Part shown: piece after piece, positions 134 through 13,856 of the stretch
Layout: each line of letters begins with the position of its first letter
Numbering within the stretch: the stretch's first letter is position 1
From: Cytophagaceae bacterium
GTDB lineage: Bacteria > Bacteroidota > Bacteroidia > Cytophagales > Flexibacteraceae
Direction: 5' to 3'
Length of the DNA: 43,717 nucleotides
NCBI GenBank assembly: GCA_027487695.1
Contig: JAIYDB010000003.1
Coordinates: forward strand, 1-43,717
Notes under the pieces: generated by a model
The model's input: the letters and a program-made list of their open reading frames with translations, nothing else
Told to the model about the DNA's origin: nothing
Database searches by the model: none
Program-made: the position numbers and the translations under genes

Positions 134-204
134 TTTCACCCCTACGGGGTTCTGTGTGTTGACAGATATTTATTTGGCTATAATACTTTCACCACTCCGT
201 GGTT
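134..204. repeat. Pair of covarying short palindromes in a gene-free stretch
   Basis: Two 18-bp elements share the frame TTTCACC......GGTT: tttcacccctacggggtt (134-151) and tttcaccactccgtggtt (187-204). The palindromic arms are ACCCC/GGGGT in the first and ACCAC/GTGGT in the second, so a C-to-A change in the left arm is matched by G-to-T in the right arm. They resemble palindromic interspersed elements I recall from Bacteroidota intergenic DNA. The whole stretch 1-301 holds no convincing gene: a 67-codon open frame there runs straight through these repeats and is not believed. Confidence 0.5.
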
Positions 205-301
205 TAAAAAAGTAATCCTCCTTATCCATTAATCATGTAAATCCTGATTAAAAAAAATCATAGCCTATCAAAAAGTAGTTTCATCACAGTTCAAGACATA
301 A

Positions 302-3280
302 TTACCCTGCCAGCCTCATGCGCACATCCTCAAAGCGTGGGTCAATTCTAAGGGGTAGGCGTTCCAGATACTGTACTTCTATACTGGGTACACCAAACTC
401 TTCTATCATTCTGCCTTCTATATAATACAGTCCTTCGCCCTTAAACTGGTATTTCTCCAGACTATCTGGAAAGTGGGTGGTATCGAAGAAATTGCCCTCA
501 CGGTCTATAAGGGTACCAAATACCATCGGTAGTCCTTTGCGGGTTCTGATGGTTTTATAGGTAACCAGCTGACCTACAATTTGCACTTGCTTGCCCACAA
601 ATTGCAGTTGCTCTTGCGCTACAATACTCGGCTTCTGATACTGCGGATGCAGTAAATCAAACATGCCTAAACTTACGGGGAAGCCTAATAAATTGAGCTC
701 ATCAAAGGCATCTTCTACAGGGCTATCGGCTGCGCCGGGCAGGGTAAATTGCTTATTGGGGGTGGCGAATAACTGTGGCAAACCCATTTGCTCCTTACGT
801 TGTGGGGCGTAAAGCAGTGGGGCTTGACGTAGCATATCTTTCTTGGTTTGGTCTGTAAAGCGCAAAGCACCTACCTGTATCAATATGGTAAGTTGTTCTA
901 AGGGAATTTTAAGTCGGTTTACGAAATCAAAAAGGGAGCGGTACTCCCCGTTTTGCAGCCTTTCCGCAGGGATAGTTTCCATCCAATGCTTTTCTAATCC
1001 TTTGATATGGATAAGCCCTAGGAATAAATCTATCCCGTATAATCGGGTAAGCAATTCACTATAATTAGCGTGTGGAGGATGAATAACCCCTCCACTCATT
1101 TTAGCCTCGTGCACATAGAGCCAAGTCTTATAAAAGCCCCCAAAATTATTGATTACCCCCACCATAAATTCCAGTGGAAAGTAGGCTTTCAAATACAAAC
1201 TCTGGTAGCTTTCCACTGCAAAGGAGGCGGAATGTGCCTTACAGAAACTATAGCCTCCAAAACTGCTGATTTGTCGCCATACTTCTTCGGTGGTGGTTTC
1301 TGGTCTGCCTAAGGCTTTGGCGCCATTAAAGAAGTTATCCTGAATTTCGGCAAAGGCTTTAGCGCTGCGGTACTTACCGCTCATCGCTCGGCGCAAAACA
1401 TCGGCATCGCCAAGGTCCATCCCTGCGTAATGATGGCATACTTTCAGTACATCTTCCTGATAAACCATTACCCCGTAAGTTTCGCCCAATTGCTCTTCCA
1501 TAACGGGGTGCAGGTATTGGAACGATTGCGGGGCGTGGTGGCGCAAGATAAACTCGCGCATCATACCACTGCTGGAAACTCCAGGACGTATGATAGAACT
1601 TGCCGCCACCAAGGTTAAGTAATCTTTGCAGTGCAACTTGCCCAAGAGCTGCCGCATTGCAGGACTTTCTACATAAAAACAGCCGATAGTGCGGCCGCCA
1701 CTTAGTAGGTGAGGTATCCATTCATCGTCTTTAAATTGCTGAATAGCGTGTATATCAATATCTTGCTTACGGTTTTCTTTGATTATACGCACGGCATCTT
1801 TAATATGCCCAATACCTCGTTGGCTTAAGATATCGAACTTATCTAGCCCTACATCTTCGGCGGTGTACATATCGAACTGGATAGTTTGAAAGCCCTTTGG
1901 AGGCAAGTGCATACTGCAAAAATTAGTGATAGGTTCTTCTGAAATAAGCACCCCGCCTGCGTGAATACTTAGCAGGTTGGGGAAATTCTGGAGTCGTTCA
2001 TAAACTGCAAATACCTCTGCTACAACCTTGTTAAAGTTCAACTTGTCCGCAGGGCTATCTATAATACGGTCAATTTCAGATTTTGGCAATCCGTGGGCTT
2101 TGCCAATTTCTCTGATAATGCTTCTATCTGAAAAGGTATTTACCGTACCTAATAAGGCGGTATGTTGCTGCCCATAGCGTTTGAAAATATAATCAAATAC
2201 ATCGTCGCGCTGGTCCCAACTGAAATCAATATCAAAATCGGGTGGTGTAGTACGCTTTGGGTTCAGAAATCGCTCGAAGTAAAGGTTCAATTCAATGGGA
2301 TTTACATCGGTAATTTTAAGGCAATACGCCACTAAGGAATTAGCCCCACTCCCCCGCCCTACATGGTAAAAACCCCTACTCATGCTATAGCGCACAATAT
2401 CCCAAGCAATAAGAAAATAGGCCACAAAGCCCATTTCACCAATAATTTTCAGCTCCTTTTCCAGACGTTGAGCCGCTATCTTATCGGTTGGGGCAAAGCG
2501 ATAGTTAAAGCCATCATAAGCCAATTTGGTAAGCAGTTGTAAATCATCGGCTGCGGAAGCAGAAAACAGCTTTTTGTTCTTAGTAGCCTTAAAATCGAAG
2601 TCAAAACTGCATTGGTATAACAGAGCATCGGTTTGCTTAGCTATCTCTGGAAACCGTTCACGAGCATAGTTAATTTGCTCGGTAGTTAGAAACACCTCCG
2701 TTTTAGCAGCCACATCGGCAGCTTGTAGTTTACTGAGCAAGGTGTTGCCTGCAACAGCCCTCAGATTGATATGTATATCATAATCGGACTCTGATACCAT
2801 AGTTAAGGTATGGCAAAACAGTAGCTTTTCAGGATGATGGCGCAACTTGCCAAACGCTAACTGATTCACTTTGAGCGGACTTATCCCAATGAACTCCCAA
2901 GGAAATAATAACTCAGGCTTTGTAATACGGGCAGCCGGATATACAAAATACACATTCGGCAGCTGCGGAGCGCGCAAAGGTAAAGGCGTTTGTTCTATGA
3001 GGTGTGTACTCAAGAAACTATTCAGATGCTGAAAGCCAACTCTATTTTGCGCAATACCTATATATAAGGTACGGTTTTGCGCATCCTGAAACTCTATACC
3101 TGCAATAAGCTTAAGTGGCTTGCCTACAGCAGCTTTTAGCACCTCCAAAAAGGCAGTGCTATTATTAATATCGGTAATCACAAGGGTGGTGATGCCACGC
3201 TTAGTGGCCTCATCTACCAAGATGATAGGTGAAATTGTGCCATAGCGAAGGCTATACCACGTTCTACAATTCAAGTACAT
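302..3280 (-). CDS. dnaE2: DNA polymerase III alpha subunit, DnaE2-like (error-prone type)
   Basis: A 992-residue C-family DNA polymerase. Order: N-terminal PHP-like domain (about 1-200), polymerase core, helix-hairpin-helix region (about 790-850) and a C-terminal OB-fold (about 890-975). The catalytic motif PPDFDIDF is present; D350 and D352 match the two active-site aspartates of E. coli DnaE. A third aspartate lies in KFDILSQRGIG. The length is near 1000, as in DnaE2/ImuC enzymes, and shorter than replicative DnaE1 (about 1160 or more). The PHP domain opens with CRTWYSLRYG and has LVITDINN where active PHP domains have histidines (LTDHGN), so metal binding and proofreading are probably lost. 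The likely role is translesion synthesis under DNA damage, which is family knowledge. No dinB or imuA partner is in the window. A twin palindromic operator directly precedes the ATG. It could instead be an unusually short replicative paralogue. Confidence 0.88.
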   Translation of the reverse strand: MYLNCRTWYSLRYGTISPIILVDEATKRGITTLVITDINNSTAFLEVLKAAVGKPLKLIAGIEFQDAQNRTLYIGIAQNRVGFQHLNSFLSTHLIEQTPLPLRAPQLPNVYFVYPAARITKPELLFPWEFIGISPLKVNQLAFGKLRHHPEKLLFCHTLTMVSESDYDIHINLRAVAGNTLLSKLQAADVAAKTEVFLTTEQINYARERFPEIAKQTDALLYQCSFDFDFKATKNKKLFSASAADDLQLLTKLAYDGFNYRFAPTDKIAAQRLEKELKIIGEMGFVAYFLIAWDIVRYSMSRGFYHVGRGSGANSLVAYCLKITDVNPIELNLYFERFLNPKRTTPPDFDIDFSWDQRDDVFDYIFKRYGQQHTALLGTVNTFSDRSIIREIGKAHGLPKSEIDRIIDSPADKLNFNKVVAEVFAVYERLQNFPNLLSIHAGGVLISEEPITNFCSMHLPPKGFQTIQFDMYTAEDVGLDKFDILSQRGIGHIKDAVRIIKENRKQDIDIHAIQQFKDDEWIPHLLSGGRTIGCFYVESPAMRQLLGKLHCKDYLTLVAASSIIRPGVSSSGMMREFILRHHAPQSFQYLHPVMEEQLGETYGVMVYQEDVLKVCHHYAGMDLGDADVLRRAMSGKYRSAKAFAEIQDNFFNGAKALGRPETTTEEVWRQISSFGGYSFCKAHSASFAVESYQSLYLKAYFPLEFMVGVINNFGGFYKTWLYVHEAKMSGGVIHPPHANYSELLTRLYGIDLFLGLIHIKGLEKHWMETIPAERLQNGEYRSLFDFVNRLKIPLEQLTILIQVGALRFTDQTKKDMLRQAPLLYAPQRKEQMGLPQLFATPNKQFTLPGAADSPVEDAFDELNLLGFPVSLGMFDLLHPQYQKPSIVAQEQLQFVGKQVQIVGQLVTYKTIRTRKGLPMVFGTLIDREGNFFDTTHFPDSLEKYQFKGEGLYYIEGRMIEEFGVPSIEVQYLERLPLRIDPRFEDVRMRLAG

Positions 3281-3286
3281 AGCCGA

Positions 3287-3331
3287 AAATGATTATTTTT
3301 TAATCATTTCAATGACTTAAATATAGTCATT
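3287..3331 (-). promoter_or_regulatory. Twin operator AATGAYT-N7-ARTCATT ahead of dnaE2
   Basis: Two perfect dyads lie side by side: aaatgatt-N7-aatcattt (3287-3309) and aatgact-N7-agtcatt (3311-3331), with centres 23 bp apart. Both fit AATGA(T/C)T-N7-A(A/G)TCATT. They sit 7 to 51 bp upstream of the polymerase ATG. On the minus strand the spacer of the distal dyad reads TATATTTA, close to the Bacteroidota -7 consensus TAnnTTTG, so a bound dimeric repressor would cover the promoter. The regulator is not identified. The region upstream of recN in this window does not show the motif. Confidence 0.65.
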
Positions 3332-3569: not shown

Positions 3570-5339
3570 ATGCCCCTTGTTTTTTCTTTTCCCAAAATAA
3601 GTAGAATAGCATTTTTACTTTTAGTAATAGGTTCTTCATCGTGTATTAGTCCATTTTTAACAGATTTTGGGAGAGGTAAAGTTTTAGTAAGTGCGAACGA
3701 ACCTAATGTTCTGGTAAGCTCTGAAGCCACAAAAAGTCCTAAAACTATTTACAGAGAGCCAATAAAAGTTAAAGCCTCAACAACTAACTCTGGCGATTTA
3801 ATTACCGCTAGAAAAAATGGTTTCCAAACCGAGCAAATATCTATTATTCCATCTGTGAAGAAAAGGCATTACCGAATAGCCGATGTTGCTTTTTCTGCTG
3901 GACTTGGTTTAGCGTGTGTAGCAGCATACGCTGCAAATGGATCAAATGAGGTTGTTCAGCAAGTTAGCGCCACCTTTGGAAGTTTCTCAGCAATTTTTAC
4001 TTATTTGAATGCCTTTTTGCCTTCTCCAGGCTATTATGGAGCATATCAAGGATACTCAAAAGATGAGGCAGTTAAGTTTAGCCTTTATCCAGATTCTATT
4101 GCTAATCCTAATAAAGCACTAATCTTATTAAGTGAATTAACCACCGAAATTGAGCCCAATCAAGCAATTGGCAAGTATTCATACTTTAAGAAAACCAAAG
4201 GCGATGTAAAAACATCTGGAAAATTAAAAGATAATTTAGAAGATGTTGAAGAACCAATAGCTAAACTACTATCTGGTTTAAAGCTTAGCCCAGGAACCTC
4301 TGAAAAGGAACTAAAGGCACTTAAAAAAGAATCGATATTAGAAAGAAATTTAGAACCTAATTTACTATTGAAGGGTAAATTAACAAAGCTAGGTTGTGAT
4401 ATAAATTATATTGGCAATCTAGATAGTGTTTTCTGCACAAATAGCACTGTTGAGTGGACTTTAACCGATAGAAATGGAAGAGCTATTCTATCTAAAACCA
4501 CCAAAGGTTATGGTCAAAGAAATTCACTTGTTATTTATAGGTATAGCACAGAAGATAACAAAGAACTTCTAAAGAATAATAACTTTAAAAAGGTTGGCGA
4601 AAATTTTGTTAGTTCAGGTTTTACTTTGGCTCTTACAGATGCTGTAAGACGTTCGGCTAATGAGTTTTTGTTTGACCCAGAAGTAAAAAAGTTTATTACT
4701 AACTATGAAAAAAATACAAAAAACGGAAAGTACGAACTCTTTAATTCTGTACTTAAGTTACAAAAGCCAAAACCATTACAAGGAGAGAAACTATTGAATG
4801 AGGCAGCAAAATCTGTAGTAACTATAATTGTAGGTGAAACACATGGTTCTGGCACTGTAATTTCTTCTGATGGGTACATTTTAACTAATGCTCACGTTTG
4901 TGGTTCAGATACTGTACTTAAAGTGAAATTTAAGAACGGGAATGAAGCTCAGGCCAAACTCGTAAGGCTAAATGTTGAATATGATTTAGCATTACTTAAA
5001 CTGCCAAAAACAGATTGCAATGGCATTATTGCTGTTGAATCTAACGATGGCTTAGAAGCTGGAGAACCAATTTTTGTTATTGGAACACCAGCAGATTTAA
5101 GCTTAAGCCAAAGCATTTCTAAAGGGTTACTTTCAGGAATTAGGACAGCTAAAGGCAAAAAGTTTTTTCAAACAGATGCAGCTGTAAACAGCGGTAATAG
5201 CGGCGGGGCTATGTTAAACGATACCTATAACCTTATTGGTATACCAAGTATCAAAATTAAAGGTTATGGCCTAGAGGGCCTTGGTTTTGCAATTCCTTCT
5301 GAAGTAGCGTTTAAGGCATTACAGATAGGTTACCGCTAA
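3570..5339 (+). CDS. Lipoprotein with PEGA-like, CsgG-like and HtrA-like serine protease domains (paralogue 1)
   Basis: A 589-residue protein. A lipoprotein signal ends in GSSSC, with the lipidated cysteine at 25. Next come a PEGA-like beta domain (about 35-95), a hydrophobic hairpin (about 105-150), a conserved block with YQGYSKDEAV and LYPDSIANPNK, then a lipoprotein-like region ending in DAVRRSANEFLFDPEV (about 355-372). The C-terminal 175 residues are a trypsin-like S1C protease with an intact triad: H442 (TNAHV), D472 (EYDLALL) and S544 (GNSGGA). No PDZ domain follows, unlike DegP/HtrA. It is the first of three tandem paralogues, with a 45-bp gap to the next. Likely periplasmic and membrane-anchored; the substrate is unknown. 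The PEGA and CsgG-like comparisons are judged by eye. DNA here is visibly AT-richer than the flanking polymerase gene. Confidence 0.8.
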   Translation: MPLVFSFPKISRIAFLLLVIGSSSCISPFLTDFGRGKVLVSANEPNVLVSSEATKSPKTIYREPIKVKASTTNSGDLITARKNGFQTEQISIIPSVKKRHYRIADVAFSAGLGLACVAAYAANGSNEVVQQVSATFGSFSAIFTYLNAFLPSPGYYGAYQGYSKDEAVKFSLYPDSIANPNKALILLSELTTEIEPNQAIGKYSYFKKTKGDVKTSGKLKDNLEDVEEPIAKLLSGLKLSPGTSEKELKALKKESILERNLEPNLLLKGKLTKLGCDINYIGNLDSVFCTNSTVEWTLTDRNGRAILSKTTKGYGQRNSLVIYRYSTEDNKELLKNNNFKKVGENFVSSGFTLALTDAVRRSANEFLFDPEVKKFITNYEKNTKNGKYELFNSVLKLQKPKPLQGEKLLNEAAKSVVTIIVGETHGSGTVISSDGYILTNAHVCGSDTVLKVKFKNGNEAQAKLVRLNVEYDLALLKLPKTDCNGIIAVESNDGLEAGEPIFVIGTPADLSLSQSISKGLLSGIRTAKGKKFFQTDAAVNSGNSGGAMLNDTYNLIGIPSIKIKGYGLEGLGFAIPSEVAFKALQIGYR

Positions 5340-5384
5340 TAGCCTTATTTACTCATAAATTGTAAATTACCTTATTCCTATAAA

Positions 5385-7067
5385 ATGACAGTAAAAGCAA
5401 TGCCCAACTACTTTAAAAGAGTATTTTCTGTTGTATTATTGATAGCTATATCAACAATCAACCAATCCTGTGTAAGTAATTTTGTTTCCAATTTTGGCAA
5501 AACTAATTATGCAGTTACTACTAATGTTCCAAATGCCCAAATAAAAAGAACAAGAAATGCAGGTAGTACAAAAGATGTTAAGGTTCAAGGCAAAAAGGCC
5601 GTTTTCAAAGCATCTAATACTAACTATGTTCGCCTTAATTTTACCAAGCAAGGCTATCAGCCGGAAACTTATGTTGTTTTTCCTGATACAAAAAAGAAAC
5701 TTAATAGGTGGTTAGATTTTGGGGCGCTTGTTGGGTTGCCAATTTTGGGTACTGCCCTCACTAGTAATCCTGGACTTGAAACAGCTGGTATTTTATTAAT
5801 AACCTATGGTGGCGTTCACTTCTACAGTCTTTTCCAACCAACACCTGGTTTTACTGGTCAATATGCGGGCTATAAAAATCCTAATTTAAAAATGGAGCTT
5901 TTCCCTGATTCACTTGCCAACCCTAATAGATTAGATGTTGTTTGTGATGAATTCAAGATAGACTTAAAATCTGGTACTGTGTTAGGTAATTTTTATAGTT
6001 TTGGGCAAAAACTTGATACCTATACCGTTAAAGATAGTTCTAATACTTCTGCTTCAGATATTATTTATGATGTAAATAAGCACTTGTCAAAATTACACCT
6101 TTTGCGTTCTGCAGCAACAATTGAAAAAACTAAATCAATTTTTGATAAAGGTATAGATCCGCGTTATATTATTAGAGGTTCAGTAAAGACTATTAATATT
6201 GATGCTCATATTGCAACCAATTATGTATTTAAAACTACTGTAAAAGTAGAGTGGAAGGTATATGACAAATTAGAACGTTTACTTTTTACTAAAACATTTG
6301 AAGGTGTTGGTCAAAGAGGTAAAGGCGATGAAGAAGATTCTGACGGTGTTAGTGCTTCTGTTGATGATGCTGTAAGGCGTTCAGTAAATCAATTAGTTTT
6401 CAGCACTGAATTTGTAAAGTATGTTCAAAAATCAAAAGATTTTGAGAAAAAGAGTGTTTACGAAAACTACACTTCTGAAATGCAAATAGCTAAACCAAAG
6501 GCCATTTCTAATGTAAAGATGGTAGGCGAAGCTTCAAATTCTGTTGTTACTGTAATACGTAAAGAATCTCATGGTTCAGGTTCTATAATTTCTCAGGATG
6601 GCTATATTCTAACCAATGCTCACGTTTGCGGAAACGATACAGTATTCAAAGTACGTTTTAAAAATGGTAGCGAAGAAACAGCAACTTTAGTGAGAATGAA
6701 TATTGATGAAGACCTAGCGTTACTACGTTTCGATAATAAAAACAGAATAAATGGTTTGGTTCTAATGAAAGATAATAGTGGTGTAACTGTTTCTGATGAG
6801 GTTTATATCATTGGTACACCTGCAGATCTTTCATTAGGTCAATCTATTAGCCGAGGCCTTATTTCAGGTGAAAGAACTATTAAAAGTAAAAAGCTTTACC
6901 AAACAGATGCCGCTATTAACGGTGGTAACAGTGGTGGTGCTATGTTAGATGAAAAGGGACGTCTTATAGGTATTCCAAGTAGCAAAATTAAAGGCACTGG
7001 TTTGGAGGGTTTAGGATTTGCAATTCCTTCTTCGGTGGTGTTTGATGCACTTAAAATATCTTATTAA
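5385..7067 (+). CDS. Lipoprotein with HtrA-like serine protease domain (paralogue 2)
   Basis: A 560-residue paralogue of the preceding gene with the same domain order. The lipobox ends in NQSC (cysteine 29 from this start; a second ATG five codons in, MPNYFKR, is equally plausible). A PEGA-like segment is followed by two hydrophobic stretches (about 108-150), then YAGYKNPNLK, LFPDSLANPNR and DDAVRRSVNQLVFSTEF. The protease triad is intact: H413 (TNAHV), D443 (EDLALL) and S516 (GNSGGA). The protease domain is much more alike between the two copies than the N-terminal half, including a shared GTPADLSLGQSIS-type block. It lies 45 bp after paralogue 1, probably in the same transcript, and is closed by the terminator at 7092-7119. 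It lacks PDZ domains. Confidence 0.8.
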   Translation: MTVKAMPNYFKRVFSVVLLIAISTINQSCVSNFVSNFGKTNYAVTTNVPNAQIKRTRNAGSTKDVKVQGKKAVFKASNTNYVRLNFTKQGYQPETYVVFPDTKKKLNRWLDFGALVGLPILGTALTSNPGLETAGILLITYGGVHFYSLFQPTPGFTGQYAGYKNPNLKMELFPDSLANPNRLDVVCDEFKIDLKSGTVLGNFYSFGQKLDTYTVKDSSNTSASDIIYDVNKHLSKLHLLRSAATIEKTKSIFDKGIDPRYIIRGSVKTINIDAHIATNYVFKTTVKVEWKVYDKLERLLFTKTFEGVGQRGKGDEEDSDGVSASVDDAVRRSVNQLVFSTEFVKYVQKSKDFEKKSVYENYTSEMQIAKPKAISNVKMVGEASNSVVTVIRKESHGSGSIISQDGYILTNAHVCGNDTVFKVRFKNGSEETATLVRMNIDEDLALLRFDNKNRINGLVLMKDNSGVTVSDEVYIIGTPADLSLGQSISRGLISGERTIKSKKLYQTDAAINGGNSGGAMLDEKGRLIGIPSSKIKGTGLEGLGFAIPSSVVFDALKISY

Positions 7068-7091
7068 GAGCTCGGTCATTTTGAATTATAT

Positions 7092-7119
7092 AGCCTCTGT
7101 TGTTACAGAGGCTTTTTTT
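7092..7119 (+). terminator. Rho-independent terminator after the protease pair
   Basis: Perfect 9-bp stem agcctctgt/acagaggct with a TGTT loop, followed by six Ts. It lies 25 bp after the stop of paralogue 2 and separates the two protease genes from the third paralogue, which therefore needs its own promoter in 7120-7169. Confidence 0.9.
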
Positions 7120-7169
7120 AGATTGAAATTATTCTACTTTGGCTTTAAATCAGAACATGTAATTACCAA

Positions 7170-8213
7170 ATGTACCAAACTGTACCAAAGCACTCATTCT
7201 TATTAGGCTTAGTGCTTATGTTCTTAACTTCTTCATGTTTAAGCAATTTAGGTACTAAGTTTGGCAAGCATACTTTTATGGTTAGTTCAAATTTGCCCAA
7301 TTATGCTGTTAGGATAAATGGAGGTAGTCCTTATCCTTTCATTGAGAAAACTGGGCCAATTACTTTCATAGGCAGTGGCAGCCAACAGATATTCTGTTTT
7401 AAAAATGGTTTCCAAGAAGAACAAGTAACCATTATTCCCAACAGGCAAAACGGATTAAGATATTTTGATATTGGGGCAGGAATTATTTATATAGCTTCAA
7501 GCTTTTCTTTTTTAGGACCTGGGTCTACCCCTACTGAGGCAATAGTAGGAGGAGCTGGTTTATTGGTATATGGATTCTCTCATTTATTAAATGCCTCGGT
7601 ACCAGCTGGCACTTTTGGTGTTTATGCCAAATACAAGAACACTACCTTACCATTTGTATTATATCCAGATTCAGCAACAAACCCGAAAAAGATACTTGTT
7701 GGATGTAATAGTTTTATGCTCAATACCCAGAAGAGTAAAGTAATTGGTAGCTTAACTGAATTTGGTAAGTATAAGGGGGTAATCAGGTTTACCGATTCAT
7801 TACTTATTGATTCTATTAGAATGGTGGAAAATGTAAACCAACACTTAGTTAAACTTAAGCTCGCAAATAAGTGGACCAAATTTAAAAAGTTAAAAAATGC
7901 CGATGCTTCATTCGCCGATGAGCCGAATTTAATTCTAAATGCAAATGTTATAGAACTTACTCAAAATGGTTTACAAGCCTTTGACAAAACTGAACTTGTA
8001 TATGAGGCTTCTATTGGAATTGAATGGACAATTACTAACAAAGAAGGCAATGTGCTTCTAAAGAAAACAACCAAGGGAGTAGGTTCAAGAAAAGAGGAGA
8101 TGTACTCTAATTTTAATAGAGCACAAGAAATTACCGCCATGGACGATGCCGTTCGAAGAGCATTAAACGAGCTCTTATTCTCTGCCCAATTTATTGAAAC
8201 TATACATCAATAA
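7170..8213 (+). CDS. Protease-less paralogue of the two upstream lipoproteins
   Basis: A 347-residue predicted lipoprotein (LTSSC, cysteine 23). It aligns by eye with the N-terminal halves of the two preceding proteins: PEGA-like FMVSSNLPNYAVRING, hydrophobic hairpin (about 95-145), YAKYKNTTLP, LYPDSATNPKK, GIEWTITNKEGNVLLKKTTKGVG and DDAVRRALNELLFSAQF. It stops at the domain boundary where the linker to the protease begins in the other two, so it looks like a stand-alone version of the sensor or scaffold module rather than a random truncation. The ATG at 7170 sits in a short direct repeat (TGTACCAAA twice). Function unknown; it may pair with, titrate or regulate the protease forms (inference). 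Confidence 0.72.
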   Translation: MYQTVPKHSFLLGLVLMFLTSSCLSNLGTKFGKHTFMVSSNLPNYAVRINGGSPYPFIEKTGPITFIGSGSQQIFCFKNGFQEEQVTIIPNRQNGLRYFDIGAGIIYIASSFSFLGPGSTPTEAIVGGAGLLVYGFSHLLNASVPAGTFGVYAKYKNTTLPFVLYPDSATNPKKILVGCNSFMLNTQKSKVIGSLTEFGKYKGVIRFTDSLLIDSIRMVENVNQHLVKLKLANKWTKFKKLKNADASFADEPNLILNANVIELTQNGLQAFDKTELVYEASIGIEWTITNKEGNVLLKKTTKGVGSRKEEMYSNFNRAQEITAMDDAVRRALNELLFSAQFIETIHQ

Positions 8214-8718: not shown

Positions 8719-10878
8719 TTAAAAGTATAGTACTTTGAATTCTGTACGTCTGTTAAGCTGGTGTTTTGCTTCGTTACAATCGCTTTCGTTAGGGCAAGGA
8801 ATGGCTGGTCTTACTTTACCATATACCTTGTAAGTTAAACGTTCTGGCGATATGCCTTTCTTCACTAAGTATTCCATAACAACTTCTGCACGACGAACGG
8901 ATAGTTCATCATTATAGCGAGAGGTTCCTCTCATATCGGTATGGCTACTTACCTCAATCATCATGGTTGGGTTATCAGTCATAATCTTGCGCACCTTTTC
9001 AAGGATTAGCAAGGCCTCATCTCTGATGTACCACTTATCAAAATCGTAATAAATGTTTTCTAGGGCTAAGGTTCTATCGGCAAGCATATAGTTCATTGTA
9101 AAGTCAATGACCTTATTACACCCACCAAGCGTATTGGTTAAGCCTGCAAAATTGCTGTTTGCAAAATATCCTTCGCCTGATACATTTACTCTTACACTTG
9201 CCCCTGGGTCAACTACAAACATATAGCTACCATCTGGCTTAGTGAATGTGTTTTCAGTTACAAGGTTTATAGTATCGTTAAGTACTACTTTAGCACCTTC
9301 TACCGGGCTTCCTTTCTCATCGCGAACAATACCAGATATTGTACAAGAATTTCCTTCATATAGATACACATATAAAGTAGTATCTCTTGTTCTTCTAGAA
9401 TCTAGTAAGAACCTTGCTCTACCTGGTCTAAAGTTTGGCTTTATCGCAGTAACATCAATATGGTTAGTGCTTATAACTGTTAAATCAGTATGCCCAACAG
9501 AGTCTGTTAGTCTATCATCAACAGGATACACAGTACTGTTTACTCTAACCAATGCTTTTTCAATAGGCACATTTCTGGTGCCATTCATTACAATAAGATT
9601 TACTCTAGCGCTGCTTCCACGGAAATAGTAAATATCGTCTTGACCGCTTCCGCCATCTCTATTACTACTCAAGAAACCTTCATCGGCAGCCTTAAAGCTG
9701 ATGCTGAAATCGTCCTTGCTGCTATTATAAGGCCTGCCTGCATTTTCAATTTTATCTAACTTACCGTCTTTAAATCTAGCTTTGAATAAATCTAAACCAC
9801 CAAAACCAGCCAAGCCATTAGAACTGAAATACACTAAGGTATCGTTAATGAATGTTGGGAACATTTCATTGCCAAAGGTATTAACAGCTGGACCCATATT
9901 AATTGGTTGGCTCCACTTATCACCATCGCGCTTGCAGTACAAGATATCGGTACCGCCAAGGGTACCTACTCTGTCAGATACAAATAGTAAGTGCTTACCA
10001 TTAGGACTAATAGAAGGGTGACCAGTACTATACTTTTCTTCGTTAAACTCGAATTCACTTGTAATTTTAAAGCCATTCTTTGTTTTTTCGGCATAGAATA
10101 ACTTCAGTAACGCCATACGAGCGGTATATTTTCCAGCTTCATTTACTGGCGATGTATTACCTGTAATTAGAATTTTGCCTGAGCTATCTGGAAAGAAAGA
10201 GAACGGACCTAAGTGAAACCTGCTGGCCTTCTTAACTTTAATCAACTTGCTATCAACAATAAAATCCTTTTCTAGACCTTCTTCTCCTTTAAAAATACGG
10301 ATGAAAGGCTTGCCGTCACCATCAAAAACACTTCCTGTGCTTCTTCTGGAGCTACAATAGTAAAGGCTGCCTTTATACCACATTGGGCTAAAGTCGTTAT
10401 TCTTACTGTTGTTCGCTTCAGCATTTATGGCAACTGTTGCAGAATAATTAGGCAATTGCCTAGGGCTATCGCAACTCTTCATGAGCATTTTTATAGGACC
10501 TGAAAGTGCAAAACGCCTGTTGTATTCCTTCAATAACGATTTTGCTTTTCCGTAATTACCAGATGCCAAAAGAGCCATAGCGTAGTTACGCATGCTTAAG
10601 CTGTCGCCACCAAAATCTGGTAGCATTTTAGCATACCAAACACAAGCAGAATCAAACTGATTGTACCGTAAAAAGCTATCGCCAATTTTGCCTGCAATGG
10701 CTACGTTTTGTTCTCTGTTGTAAGCTCTACGTAGTTTTGGAATAGCTACATTCCAAGCTCCGTTTTCGTAAAGAAAATCGGCCCTACGCGATTTTAATAC
10801 CTGAGCTACTCCATTGTTGCTTACTAGGCAACTAAGCATAACAACAAGTAAGGATAATATTTTTGTATAGTTTTTCAT
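8719..10878 (-). CDS. PorE-like protein: TPR, PD40 propeller, carboxypeptidase-regulatory-like and OmpA domains
   Basis: A 719-residue protein with a signal peptide (to about 25, GVAQ). TPR-like helices (about 30-125) are followed by WD40-like PD40 beta-propeller repeats (about 145-430; HPSISPNGKHLLFVSDR and YFSSNGLAGFGGLDLFKA are typical), carboxypeptidase-regulatory-like strands (about 440-595; ISGIVRDEKGSPVEGAKV) and an OmpA peptidoglycan-binding domain at the end (SHTDMRGTSRYNDELSVRRA, NRRTEF). This four-domain order is that of PorE, a T9SS protein of Porphyromonas gingivalis (family knowledge). It follows porP/sprF by 36 bp and ends at the terminator 8665-8696. Likely role: tying the PorP-associated outer-membrane complex to peptidoglycan in the periplasm. 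Bacteroidota carry several such paralogues, so orthology to PorE itself is not proven. Confidence 0.82.
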   Translation of the reverse strand: MKNYTKILSLLVVMLSCLVSNNGVAQVLKSRRADFLYENGAWNVAIPKLRRAYNREQNVAIAGKIGDSFLRYNQFDSACVWYAKMLPDFGGDSLSMRNYAMALLASGNYGKAKSLLKEYNRRFALSGPIKMLMKSCDSPRQLPNYSATVAINAEANNSKNNDFSPMWYKGSLYYCSSRRSTGSVFDGDGKPFIRIFKGEEGLEKDFIVDSKLIKVKKASRFHLGPFSFFPDSSGKILITGNTSPVNEAGKYTARMALLKLFYAEKTKNGFKITSEFEFNEEKYSTGHPSISPNGKHLLFVSDRVGTLGGTDILYCKRDGDKWSQPINMGPAVNTFGNEMFPTFINDTLVYFSSNGLAGFGGLDLFKARFKDGKLDKIENAGRPYNSSKDDFSISFKAADEGFLSSNRDGGSGQDDIYYFRGSSARVNLIVMNGTRNVPIEKALVRVNSTVYPVDDRLTDSVGHTDLTVISTNHIDVTAIKPNFRPGRARFLLDSRRTRDTTLYVYLYEGNSCTISGIVRDEKGSPVEGAKVVLNDTINLVTENTFTKPDGSYMFVVDPGASVRVNVSGEGYFANSNFAGLTNTLGGCNKVIDFTMNYMLADRTLALENIYYDFDKWYIRDEALLILEKVRKIMTDNPTMMIEVSSHTDMRGTSRYNDELSVRRAEVVMEYLVKKGISPERLTYKVYGKVRPAIPCPNESDCNEAKHQLNRRTEFKVLYF

Positions 10879-10914
10879 ACCTCTAATGGGTTTCGAGTCC
10901 TAACCTTATGGCTA

Positions 10915-11829
10915 TTAAAAATAACGTGGACTTTGAGCCAATGAACGTTTAACGCCTAAATCGAACCCAATGTAAATTTCGTGAGAGCCTCTGTTATAAG
11001 GGTTTAATCCATTGATTGAATAATCATAAGAGTAGCCCATATACCAATTGGACTGTGGCCAAATTTGGAAGATAGCTGATAGTGTTTCCACGTTCCTTAG
11101 CGTAGTTCCAAATAAGAAAACATCGTCGTAGATAAAGGCAGCATTCAAGTCCATTTGTAATGGTGCATCTTTAACGTATTTTACTAAAGCACCTGGTCTA
11201 AACTTCAAGGTTTCAGAAATATCAAATATGTAAGCACCGCCTAAGAAAATATGCTGGTCTTGCTCTGTTCTAATAGCTGTTCCATCAGCATTAGTAGTTT
11301 TAAGATTTTCCTTTATCAAGTAAGGTGCAGAAAGACTTAATTTCAATCGTTCGCTGAAATAGTATAGACCTACACCAACATTCGGTTTCCAACTATTTAC
11401 CCTACCAGTAAATGATGGATCGCCAGGAATAAAGGTGGTTACTTTACTAAGGTCGGCATCGTAGTTTCTGAAACCGCCGTGCATACCAAATTGTAAGTTA
11501 CCTTCATTCAGTTCTAACCTATAGGCACCACTTATGAATAAGTGATTTGTAGTAAAAATACCTACTCTATCGTGCATAGCGTTTAAGCCAACACTAAAGT
11601 TCTTACTTACAGGGCTATGTCCTTGAAAGAAGTAAGTTTTAGGACCGCCTTCAATACCTACCCATTGGTTACGATAAAAAAGAACACCACTCATTGCATC
11701 TCTAGAGCCTGCATAAGCAGGATTGTAACCAAGACCACTGATAAAGAATTGTGAAAACTTAGGGTCTTGTTGTGCGTAACAACCAATGCCAGTTGAAAGC
11801 AACATAATTAGGAAAAGCAGCTTTTTCAT
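10915..11829 (-). CDS. T9SS membrane protein, PorP/SprF family
   Basis: A 304-residue outer-membrane beta-barrel with a signal peptide cut after CYAQ. It starts with the family hallmark QQDPKFSQFFISGLGYNPAYAGSRDAM-type segment (residues about 20-45) and contains HSPVSKNFSVGLNAMHDRVG and repeated amphipathic strands ending in a barrel-like terminus. SprF-type members are needed for secretion or attachment of cargo with type B sorting domains. The gene directly upstream encodes such cargo and its stop overlaps this ATG by 4 bp (ATGA), so translation is coupled. Strong family call. The precise paralogue is unclear because genomes of this phylum carry many PorP/SprF copies. Confidence 0.93.
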   Translation of the reverse strand: MKKLLFLIMLLSTGIGCYAQQDPKFSQFFISGLGYNPAYAGSRDAMSGVLFYRNQWVGIEGGPKTYFFQGHSPVSKNFSVGLNAMHDRVGIFTTNHLFISGAYRLELNEGNLQFGMHGGFRNYDADLSKVTTFIPGDPSFTGRVNSWKPNVGVGLYYFSERLKLSLSAPYLIKENLKTTNADGTAIRTEQDQHIFLGGAYIFDISETLKFRPGALVKYVKDAPLQMDLNAAFIYDDVFLFGTTLRNVETLSAIFQIWPQSNWYMGYSYDYSINGLNPYNRGSHEIYIGFDLGVKRSLAQSPRYF

Positions 11830-13856
11830 CGGCGTATGGTAATGTATTTAACTACAGATTCGTTGGTATCTTTTAATTTTACTACTATGAAGTAGGTTCC
11901 ATCTGGAACTGGACCGCCACCGGCAACAAGGCCTTCATTGGCATGACCATCCCAGTTGTTTTTGTATTCTTCATCTTTGTAAACGAGGCTTCCCCAGCGG
12001 TTATAAACCGAAAGTTCAATTTTCATTGCCTCAATATCGCCAATGCGAAAGGTGTTGTTAAACTCATCACCATTTGGAGAGAACCCATCTGGTATTCGGA
12101 TATCGCCAATTCTTAAAAATGGTACTATCCTAATAATGATCGTATCTAGAGCACAAAGCGGAGGGTTATTGAAATCGCATACATAGTAAAGTATGGTATC
12201 GCGTTCATTAGTTAAACCCGCCTTAGGTATATAGGTAAAATCGCCATTGTTTGCACCATTGGTAGCTCTTTGGGCAATTGTACCGTGCTTTGGGAATTTA
12301 ATAATAGTTATAGTCCTTGGGTCATAACCTTTAGGGAAAGTATTATTCCTATGCGGATAAATATCTAAGAACTTCGTAGTGTTGGCAATAACAAAGCTAT
12401 CTACTCTTGCTCTTGGAGGTACTATATTATCAGGATCGTCGCAATCTGTAATTCTTGCAGTAAAGGCATAATTTCTGGTATAACCACTCCACCAAGTATT
12501 TAGTGAACGTACATTACCAAATCCATAAGGTGAACCCACCATAGGGTCAACAATATCTGCTGGGGTAGCTAACCAAGTATGGCAATTACTATCGCAGCCA
12601 TCTAAATTGGTATTTCCGAACGGGATATTGCTATCGTCAAAATACATTTTGTTTGGCAAAGCACTCGGTCGTACCGATCTACTTTTGAAACCTATTGGAT
12701 TAAACTCTGCATCATAGATGGAGTAATTAGATAAACCCGCAATTACATCTAGCTGCACTTGTATTTGTGTACCTGCTCTTACTTTGTTACCCAAACCATC
12801 TAAACCGTTCCAGTTAACGCAGTTAGGTCCTGATAATAAGAATCGGTTAAATCGCACATCTCGGGTATTGGCTTGGTATCCAGGTTGCCCATTCAACTCT
12901 ATGTACATATCGCAGTAACAGAGCTTATCAGGTACTAGTGAAATACAATACCTACCAGCATCGCAACCAGCTAATCTTGGTTGTACATTTAACTTAGCAG
13001 GAATACCACTTGGAAATAAAAGCGGATCTGGATCATTTAAGAAAATCTTGTATTCTGGGTAGTAATACTTGTAATCTCTTGAACGTCTGTCAAATTCAAC
13101 ATCACCTGTATTAGTTAGTCCTGTTCTATTACAAGTTACTGAGAAACCGAACGGACGGCAGCCATTCATATCGAACAGCGTTACTATACTATCGCTTGAG
13201 TAAATATAAAACTTTGTATAAACAGGGTTATTGATGCTGTTAGCGTTCATATCCCAGTTTTTGGACCATAACCTACCATCCCTAGTTTGTCCATCACGCT
13301 CTACCGTAATATCAAAATGCCTAATAGCGAAGTTCCTGTTAAATACGTTAGCTGGAGGTGGCGTAGTTGGGTTATCTGGGTTAAACTCAATATAATAATC
13401 GCCTGACAATAATGGCTGATAAACAAAGCCATCGTAACCAGTGGCACCTGCTAAAGCACGAGGACCAGCAACAGCTTCTTCATAGTTTCTAATATAACCC
13501 CTGCCTCTTCTTGGGATTGGTTCTGGACCAATAACTACGTTTCCGTTAGGGTCTTTTATCCTGAAATAACCTTGCAAGAACGATGAAGAGTCTACGAAGT
13601 TATCAGAGAACACTTGCCCAAAGCCAAAGTGGATTTTTTCACGGCCAGGATCTGCAATAGAAATATATAATCGCTCATTTGGGTTTGCTAGGTAACTAGC
13701 GAACTTAGTTAGCGTAGGGTTCAATATTTCTAGGTTTACCTGCAAATCTGGTCGGGGTATCAATTGCTTGGTACCCTCAGCCACCACAGGCTGTACTACG
13801 TTTAATAGCACCACCAAAGCCAGCAGTTGTTTCAATAAATTAGTAGCTCTTTTCAT
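11826..13856 (-). CDS. Secreted surface protein with T9SS type B (CHU_C) sorting domain
   Basis: A 676-residue secreted protein with a signal peptide to about residue 26 (VVAEG). The C-terminal 85 residues are a gliding-motility-associated/type B sorting domain: PDGFSPNGDEFNNTFRI, VYNRWGSLVYK, NWDGHANEG, PDGTYFIVVKLKD. The body is rich in beta strands and cysteines (at least ten, often as C-x2-6-C pairs), consistent with disulphide-stabilised Ig-like modules. A cadherin-like stretch precedes the sorting domain (GTIAQRATNGANNGDFTYIP). Role: cell-surface or released protein, possibly adhesin-like, exported by the T9SS. It is encoded between a glycosyltransferase (21-bp gap) and PorP/SprF (4-bp overlap), which argues that the three act together. 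No enzyme motif was recognised. Confidence 0.85.
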   Translation of the reverse strand: MKRATNLLKQLLALVVLLNVVQPVVAEGTKQLIPRPDLQVNLEILNPTLTKFASYLANPNERLYISIADPGREKIHFGFGQVFSDNFVDSSSFLQGYFRIKDPNGNVVIGPEPIPRRGRGYIRNYEEAVAGPRALAGATGYDGFVYQPLLSGDYYIEFNPDNPTTPPPANVFNRNFAIRHFDITVERDGQTRDGRLWSKNWDMNANSINNPVYTKFYIYSSDSIVTLFDMNGCRPFGFSVTCNRTGLTNTGDVEFDRRSRDYKYYYPEYKIFLNDPDPLLFPSGIPAKLNVQPRLAGCDAGRYCISLVPDKLCYCDMYIELNGQPGYQANTRDVRFNRFLLSGPNCVNWNGLDGLGNKVRAGTQIQVQLDVIAGLSNYSIYDAEFNPIGFKSRSVRPSALPNKMYFDDSNIPFGNTNLDGCDSNCHTWLATPADIVDPMVGSPYGFGNVRSLNTWWSGYTRNYAFTARITDCDDPDNIVPPRARVDSFVIANTTKFLDIYPHRNNTFPKGYDPRTITIIKFPKHGTIAQRATNGANNGDFTYIPKAGLTNERDTILYYVCDFNNPPLCALDTIIIRIVPFLRIGDIRIPDGFSPNGDEFNNTFRIGDIEAMKIELSVYNRWGSLVYKDEEYKNNWDGHANEGLVAGGGPVPDGTYFIVVKLKDTNESVVKYITIRR

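What the first reader, a model, noticed from the sequence alone, without database searches (positions are those of the whole stretch)
3287..3331. Twin AATGAYT-N7-ARTCATT operator ahead of a DnaE2-type polymerase
Two perfect dyads of the same design are placed 23 bp apart, directly before the start codon. The spacer of one coincides with a -7-like TATATTTA on the coding strand. That is the layout of a repressor-controlled mutagenesis gene in a phylum where classical LexA boxes are mostly not described. It could define the recognition site of a Bacteroidota SOS-like repressor.
Basis: partly seen in the sequence, partly recalled or inferred. Interest (0 to 1): 0.68.

Follow-up and report, generated by a model that had tools for sequence, protein, structure and literature searches.

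The report
Paired DNA-damage repressor sites before dnaE2
Two matched palindromes in front of an error-prone DNA polymerase gene look like paired docking sites for a DNA-damage repressor; similar sites, with a weaker partner at the same 23-base spacing, sit before other DNA-repair genes of the same bacterium, so they probably mark a small emergency-mutation regulon with its own recognition code.

Summary
The two dyads are real (3288-3308, 3311-3331; centres 23 bp apart, 18 and 41 nt before the dnaE2 ATG). Their 21-mer occurs nowhere else in the 2.89-Mb genome. The core TGAYT-N7-ARTCA with an A/T-only spacer occurs exactly three times: twice here, once before dinB. One-mismatch copies precede recA and the repair gene rSAM_link_UDG. 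At dinB, recA and rSAM_link_UDG a weaker partner lies exactly 23 bp away, the single best of 56 offsets each time (0 of 13 control sites).

The likely repressor is an HTH_3+S24 protein (contig C30, L017), a relative of the published Bacteroidetes "non-canonical LexA" with Ala-Gly and Ser-Lys intact. dnaE2 promoters of the same order carry the published CTAA-N5-TTAG box or a CCAA form (16 of 48; 0.5 in shuffles). TG-N13-CA pairs at 23 bp recur in genomes holding the L017 clade.

Verdict: a lineage-specific SOS operator pair of a known repressor family, probably bound cooperatively as by lambda CI, and shared by the genes of a proposed DnaE2-PolY-RecA mutasome. Binding, cleavage and induction are untested. 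Against: recA of G007/G008 lacks the site, and L017's own promoter has only weak sites.

The parts
302..3280 (-). dnaE2-type gene (992 aa) controlled by the operator pair
   Evidence: ORF; PHP, DNA_pol3_alpha, finger and HHH domains; a longer DnaE is encoded at G000:C43
3288..3308 (.). proximal operator AATGATTATTTTTTAATCATT (core 3290-3306), centre at -18
3311..3331 (.). distal operator, AATGACTATATTTAAGTCATT on the coding strand (core 3313-3329), centre at -41
3318..3325 (-). TATATTTA, -7-like element inside the distal operator
   Evidence: read from the sequence; the promoter assignment is inference from the Bacteroidota -7 consensus TAnnTTTG (recalled)

Best explanation
The pair is the operator of a LexA-like repressor, most likely the HTH_3+S24 protein on contig C30 (L017). 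A repressor dimer sits on each 17-bp dyad TGAYT-N7-ARTCA. Two dimers 23 bp apart, roughly on one face of the helix, probably help each other bind through their S24 domains, as lambda CI does on its 17-bp operators. The distal dyad covers the -7-like element and the proximal one the likely start region, so dnaE2 is shut off. DNA damage makes RecA filaments, the repressor cleaves itself at Ala-Gly, and dnaE2, dinB, recA and the rSAM/UDG repair gene are released together. Shown here: the sites, their rarity, their presence before these genes, the 23-bp partner, the repressor's domains and catalytic residues. Inferred: which protein binds, cooperativity, cleavage, induction.
For: Exact core with A/T-only spacer occurs 3 times in the genome, all before dnaE2 (2) or dinB (1). 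One-mismatch copies before recA (centre -41) and before TIGR03916 rSAM_link_UDG (E 1.6e-196). The partner at 23 bp is the single best of 56 offsets at dinB, recA and rSAM (3 of 3) and at none of 13 control sites. Orthologous dnaE2 promoters of the order carry the published LexA box or a CCAA form: 16 of 48, shuffles 0.52, maximum 4. L017 has HTH_3, S24, Ala-Gly, Ser and Lys and is 54.5% identical to its G007 counterpart. TG-N13-CA pairs at 23 bp: 13 of 103 promoters, shuffles 0.31; 5 of the 6 scanned genomes with the L017 clade show one, the sixth (G007) a degenerate pair, and 0 of the 10 others do. In G043, G057 (L017 clade) and G001, G003, G005 the S24 gene is divergent from dinB.
Against: No strong site before L017 itself: its best 23-bp pair scores 15 of 20, and a pair at 42 bp scores 16. 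recA of G007 and G008 has no site. Two other own places match the twin pattern at 3 mismatches near genes with no evident repair role, and one lies inside an ORF. The twin-pattern count (7 against 2 for the reversed control) is weak by itself: g2 genomes with other boxes also exceed that control, 21 against 1 in G001-G005 together. The rSAM site was noticed by inspecting 15 places, not predicted beforehand. No binding or induction data exist.
Confidence: 0.77

Rival explanations
1. The reader of the sites is the other S24 protein of the genome (L016 on C102), not L017.
For: L016 has an S24 domain. G000 and G007, the genomes with TGAYT-like sites, are the two of the 16 scanned that hold this type; the g2 genomes scanned (G001, G003, G005) with CYAA boxes do not.
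Against: L016 and its G007 relative lack Ala-Gly at the cleavage place (AAA, TAT in the alignment). No site in the L016 promoter (best 23-bp pair 14 of 20). The f19 genomes scanned that share the 23-bp pair architecture have no L016-type protein.
Confidence: 0.11
2. A regulator outside the S24 family binds the dyads, and the link with DNA damage comes only from the genes it controls.
For: L017 autoregulation is weak, and the published boxes are not at the dnaE2, dinB or recA promoters of this genome (no exact CYAA-N5-TTRG).
Against: The targets are the published SOS set, relatives use S24-repressor boxes at the same promoters, and architecture follows the L017 clade.
Confidence: 0.07
3. A/T-rich chance palindromes, or hairpins in the 5' leader, without a DNA-binding protein.
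For: The region is 23% G+C and 7-N7-7 dyads are common in the window, 10 against 3.9 expected. The exact 21-mer occurs in 101 of 390 genomes of the order, mostly as singletons in the listed places.
Against: Two dyads of one class in one promoter, the same core before dinB and recA, and the fixed 23-bp partner. At rSAM the sites lie at -78 and -55, upstream of TATCTTTG, a -7-like element (that assignment is inference), so probably not in the transcript.
Confidence: 0.04

Closest known systems
Bacteroidetes non-canonical LexA and its CTAA-N5-TTAG box (PMC8565304)
   Same: HTH_3+S24 repressor with Ala-Gly and Ser-Lys; targets dinB, recA, dnaE2 and the UDG/radical-SAM system; boxes doubled in some promoters; diverged boxes already known (TTAC-N5-GTAA, bound in Elizabethkingia anophelis).
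   Different: Half-site and spacer differ (TGAYT-N7-ARTCA); strict 23-bp pairs; weak sites before the repressor's own gene. No word beginning with cooperativ occurs in that paper's main text; its supplementary motif tables could not be read.
Lambda CI operators (OR/OL)
   Same: 17-bp operators (PMC10742460, passage); neighbours 23-24 bp apart centre to centre (recalled); HTH plus S24-type C-terminal domain, nearest fold hit a lambda-186 hybrid repressor.
   Different: Chromosomal DNA-repair regulon, not a prophage switch; other half-site letters; cooperativity not tested.
DnaE2B-PolY-RecA module of Bacteroidetes (PMC12926913)
   Same: A DnaE2-type gene, a single IMS-domain gene whose product has a RecA-N-terminus-like stretch, and RecA; so no separate ImuB.
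   Different: That paper infers complexes, not regulation (LexA: 0 occurrences in its main text). Here the three genes lie on three contigs and share the operator.
Canonical LexA (winged helix, PF01726) and ImuA-ImuB-DnaE2 cassette
   Same: Logic of SOS control of an error-prone DnaE2.
   Different: Neither S24 protein of this genome matches the LexA winged-helix family; no second Y-family gene for ImuB.

Membership tests
Bacteroidetes non-canonical LexA (protein L017) | N-terminal HTH_3 (PF01381) and C-terminal S24 (PF00717) | tested here: met
   HTH_3 E 2.3e-11, S24 E 2.2e-5, both over the cut-off
Bacteroidetes non-canonical LexA (protein L017) | Ala-Gly cleavage pair and Ser-Lys dyad | tested here: met
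   KAKAGY, SGDSM and VFK in the alignment; S152 and K191 invariant in 18 rows
Bacteroidetes non-canonical LexA (protein L017) | Regulates its own gene | tested here: inconclusive
   Best 23-bp pair 15 of 20, not the best spacing; G007 counterpart has a pair of 16 of 20, tied with spacing 19
Bacteroidetes non-canonical LexA (protein L017) | CTAA-N5-TTAG or GGA-N5-TCC box | tested here: not met
   No exact CYAA-N5-TTRG in 200 nt before own dnaE2, dinB or recA; the GGA box was not scanned. The family is known to have diverged boxes, so this limits the box, not the protein
Bacteroidetes non-canonical LexA (protein L017) | Specific binding, RecA-stimulated cleavage, damage induction | not testable with these tools
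   needs experiments
Canonical LexA | Winged-helix LexA_DNA_bind (PF01726) N-terminus | tested here: not met
   Not found in either S24 protein; only two S24 matches in the genome, 96% complete
Lambda-OR-like cooperative operator pair | 17-bp operators at fixed 23-24 bp spacing | tested here: met
Lambda-OR-like cooperative operator pair | Cooperative binding of two dimers | not testable with these tools
   needs binding assays with altered spacing
ImuA-ImuB-DnaE2 cassette | ImuB (a second Y-family gene) next to dnaE2 | tested here: not met
   One IMS match in the genome, on another contig, and it is DinB-like; ImuA was not searched
DnaE2B-PolY-RecA module | Y-family polymerase with a RecA-NT motif in an ImuB-less genome | tested here: inconclusive
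   DinB residues 355-375 resemble own RecA N-terminus by a pattern of mine; the published profile was not used
DnaE2 polymerases | Second, non-replicative DnaE of the DnaE2 group | tested here: inconclusive
   A longer DnaE exists at C43; the error-prone model PRK05672 is matched below its cut-off (446.9 against 939 bits) and general DnaE models score as well or better; no C-family tree was built

The most novel reading that the evidence does not exclude
A subclade of Bacteroidota S24 repressors reads lambda-like paired operators: two 17-bp TGNNN-N7-NNNCA dyads exactly 23 bp apart, bound by two cooperating dimers. The pair rule is kept while half-site letters drift (TGAYT/ARTCA here, TGTTA/TAACA in another family). 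In this lineage it co-regulates all three proposed subunits of the DnaE2B-PolY-RecA mutasome from separate loci. A phage-type switch architecture would thus have been carried into a chromosomal SOS system.
Probability: 0.5. Interest if true: 0.7.

Novelty: new variant of a known kind. Interest (0 to 1): 0.58.

Why it matters
It gives a predicted SOS box, with a named candidate repressor, for a lineage without the published ones, and shows how the box drifts between relatives while the pair geometry stays. It links a polymerase module so far inferred from gene association and modelling (DnaE2B-PolY-RecA) to one common switch. The 23-bp rule can be tested with one purified protein and a few DNA fragments, and it offers a way to find SOS regulons where searches for single boxes drown in chance matches.

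Tried and rejected
The literal 21-mer as a regulon marker: rejected, because outside dnaE2 only degenerate copies exist in this genome and exact copies occur in 101 of 390 genomes of the order (the listing of places was cut). The core alone, TGAYT-N7-ARTCA: 20 against 17 for the control. Of the 20, 9 lie inside ORFs, 5 belong to an interspersed repeat, 3 are other intergenic places, 2 are dnaE2 and 1 is dinB. The place upstream of a DUF6591 gene (L004/L099) was judged chance: no partner. Control of the divergent HtrA-like gene at 3570: unlikely, about 240 nt or more away. L016 as the repressor: less likely (see rivals). One scan of genome contigs with the dnaE2 protein gave one locus (L070, Saprospiraceae MAG, 48% identity), with no exact site before its dnaE2. 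A paper search with Saprospir/LexA/SOS/operator showed only general LexA papers among the 8 of 229 listed.

Rows left out before counts: of the 49 genomes with a dnaE2 match, G008, G051 and G192, and one fragment of G134, had no usable upstream DNA. The 48 promoters are 46 genomes plus a second G134 copy and L070. Many of these dnaE2 genes follow another gene closely and may have no promoter of their own. In one search one of three control patterns also exceeded its shuffles (3 against 0.54, maximum 3). The tree leaves out the two UmuD-like rows G176_L106 and G142_L107. Control sites are 13 of the 17 non-SOS core places; the four left out are further repeat copies. The background (171,901 bases of own loci) has overlapping loci and contains the dinB and recA sites, so its tail values are rough. 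Of the 13 pairs, those of G179 and G109 are poor dyads and probably chance, and the two S24-gene pairs are imperfect. The exonuclease-ligase pair of G007/G008 was found with the pair pattern and is not counted as independent; G007 and G008 are one genus.

Full report
WHAT IS THERE. The minus-strand ORF 302-3280 (992 aa) is a DnaE with PHP, NTPase, finger and HHH domains. A longer DnaE is encoded at G000:C43, so this is a second, DnaE2-type enzyme; the error-prone NCBIfam model is matched, but below its cut-off. Directly upstream lie 3288-3308 AATGATTATTTTTTAATCATT and 3311-3331 AATGACTTAAATATAGTCATT, centred at -18 and -41, 23 bp apart. The expected number of perfect 7-N7-7 dyads in this intergenic region is 0.10. 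The exact 21-mer occurs only here in the 2.89-Mb genome.

THE SAME CORE BEFORE OTHER DAMAGE GENES. The core TGAYT-N7-ARTCA occurs 20 times in the genome against 17 for the reversed control, so by itself it is noise. With an A/T-only spacer it occurs exactly three times: twice at dnaE2 and once before dinB, centred at -23. dinB is divergent from an SRAP gene (PF02586). Among the 15 places with at most one mismatch (control 12) are recA, TGATT-ATTTTTA-CGTCA centred at -41, and a place before a 417-aa protein that matches TIGR03916 rSAM_link_UDG at E 1.6e-196. dinB and recA were tested because they are known SOS genes; the rSAM gene was noticed on inspecting the list. PMC8565304 names dinB, recA, the dnaE2 cassette and the COG1573-COG4277 UDG system as SOS targets in Bacteroidetes (passages); that TIGR03916 corresponds to COG4277 is recalled.

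THE 23-BP PARTNER. Taking the spacing from dnaE2 alone, I asked where the best partner of the strong site lies at dinB, recA and rSAM among 56 offsets (17-44 bp on either side). In 3 of 3 the single best is at 23 bp, with 7, 7 and 8 of 10 letters. Of 13 other core sites of the genome, 0 had 23 as the single best; one, a repeat copy, tied. By hand, (2/56) cubed is about 5e-5. Within 250 nt upstream, the best pair over spacings 17-44 is at 23 in each of the four promoters. For L017's own promoter it is not: 15 of 20 at 23 bp, 16 at 42 bp. A search with the twin pattern (up to 3 mismatches) gave 7 own places against 2 for the reversed control: dnaE2 (0 mismatches), a repeat copy (2), rSAM, dinB, one inside an ORF, and two others. 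That excess is weak evidence by itself, since G001-G005, whose boxes differ, also show 21 places against 1.

RELATIVES. G007 (same family, other genus) has dinB just upstream of dnaE2 on the same strand. G007 and G008 both have a pair TGATT-N7-GATCT / TGACG-N7-AATCA at 23 bp before dinB. A pair also precedes a ligase-associated DNA damage response exonuclease (TIGR04122, E 9.8e-137 in G008) followed by a DNA ligase, in both. Their recA has no site. Across the order, 16 of 48 dnaE2 promoters carry CYAA-N5-TTRG (the CTAA box or its CCAA form) within 120 nt, against 0.52 in shuffles (maximum 4). GTTA-N7-TAAC is in 2 of 48 (0.18 in shuffles) and GAYT-N7-ARTC in 1 of 48, this one. G131 has GTTA-N7-TAAC twice before dnaE2 and once before its S24 gene. 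In G001 and G005 two or three boxes (up to one mismatch each) stand 21-24 bp apart before dnaE2 and between dinB and the divergent S24 gene; in G003 and G004 the two dnaE2 boxes are 44 bp apart. TG-N13-CA pairs at exactly 23 bp occur in 13 of 103 dnaE2, dinB, recA and S24-gene promoters; shuffles give 0.31 (maximum 3), and each other spacing from 17 to 35 gives 0-3. The 13 are this dnaE2, the dnaE2 of all five g37 genomes in the set and of G108, two dinB, two S24 genes, and two likely chance hits. Other f19 genera in the set carry CTAA boxes (g72) or none of these motifs (g24, g91).

THE REPRESSOR. The genome holds two S24 proteins. L017 (C30) has HTH_3 and S24, Ala-Gly and the Ser-Lys dyad. 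It groups with the G007 protein (100/98), then with paralogs of G043, G057, G108 and G163 (98/97). Of the 16 genomes scanned for S24, these six hold this clade. Five of the six show the TG-N13-CA 23-bp pair and G007 a degenerate one; none of the other ten does. The genomes are related, so these are not independent cases. In G043 and G057 the clade's gene is divergent from dinB, and so are the S24 genes of G001, G003 and G005 (coordinates). The AlphaFold model (mean pLDDT 76, pTM 0.52, weak linker) finds a lambda-186 hybrid repressor and LexA as the nearest solved structures, at low whole-chain TM-scores (0.26-0.38), and ImmR, SinR and P22 c2 for the HTH alone. L016, the other S24 protein, lacks Ala-Gly and has no good site in its promoter. 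Neither matches the canonical LexA winged helix.

HOW IT PROBABLY WORKS. A dimer on each 17-bp dyad, two dimers side by side, occludes the -7 region: TATATTTA lies within the distal dyad, and recA (TATTTTTA) and the weak dinB partner (TAATTTTA) read alike there, a resemblance seen by eye in the sequences. RecA-stimulated self-cleavage would release dnaE2, dinB and recA together. PMC12926913 (section 20 and passages) proposes a DnaE2B-PolY-RecA complex in Bacteroidetes without ImuA and ImuB. Here only one Y-family gene was found, its C-terminal part resembles the RecA N-terminus, and the three genes carry the operator although they lie on three contigs. That the complex forms is that paper's inference; that it is co-regulated here is mine.

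COMPARISON AND NOVELTY. By protein family and targets it belongs with the published non-canonical LexA systems (PMC8565304: abstract, sections 13 and 16, passages), but its box is not theirs and control of its own gene is weak. That paper already shows a diverged box bound in Elizabethkingia. The pair resembles lambda operators in layout (17 bp long: PMC10742460, passage; 23-24 bp spacing recalled). The paper's main text has no word beginning with cooperativ; its supplements could not be read. A search for later work on LexA in Bacteroidota listed nine papers (listing only); none of the other titles is about a new box in this phylum. I therefore call it a new variant of a known kind.

Noticed in passing
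L111, L120, L122, L123 (S24 proteins of G057, G043, G108, G163): The four paralogs nearest to L017 and its G007 counterpart have Ala-Ser instead of Ala-Gly at the cleavage place (KAKASY), although in G043 and G057 they sit divergent from dinB. Whether they can cleave is open.
   Followed up: partly
L167 (G001) and L171 (G005), dinB/S24-gene intergenic region: Three CYAA-N5-TTRG boxes (one of them with one mismatch in G001) at 21 and 24 bp spacing between divergent S24 and dinB genes, a layout like the three operators of lambda OR.
   Followed up: partly
L230 (G007), L238 (G008): An exact TGAYT-W7-ARTCA site with a partner 23 bp away (tied best in G007) in a gene-poor stretch about 300 bp before a TetR-like gene; conserved in both genomes, target unclear.
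   Followed up: partly
L115 and the dnaE2 promoter of G131: GTTA-N7-TAAC twice before dnaE2 and once before the S24 gene: another candidate diverged LexA box.
   Followed up: partly
L091, L102, L103, L129, L130: An interspersed repeat (AAATCCTGATTCAGACAAAATCA with a CCACTCCGTGGTTTAAA part) that mimics the operator core; a related stretch seems to lie downstream of dnaE2 near window 180-260.
   Followed up: partly
window 3570-8213: Three related ORFs in a row; the first two end in HtrA/trypsin-like domains, the third lacks that domain.
   Followed up: no
window 8719-13856: An OmpA/PD40 protein, a PorP/SprF protein and a CHU_C (type IX secretion signal) protein in a row on the minus strand.
   Followed up: no
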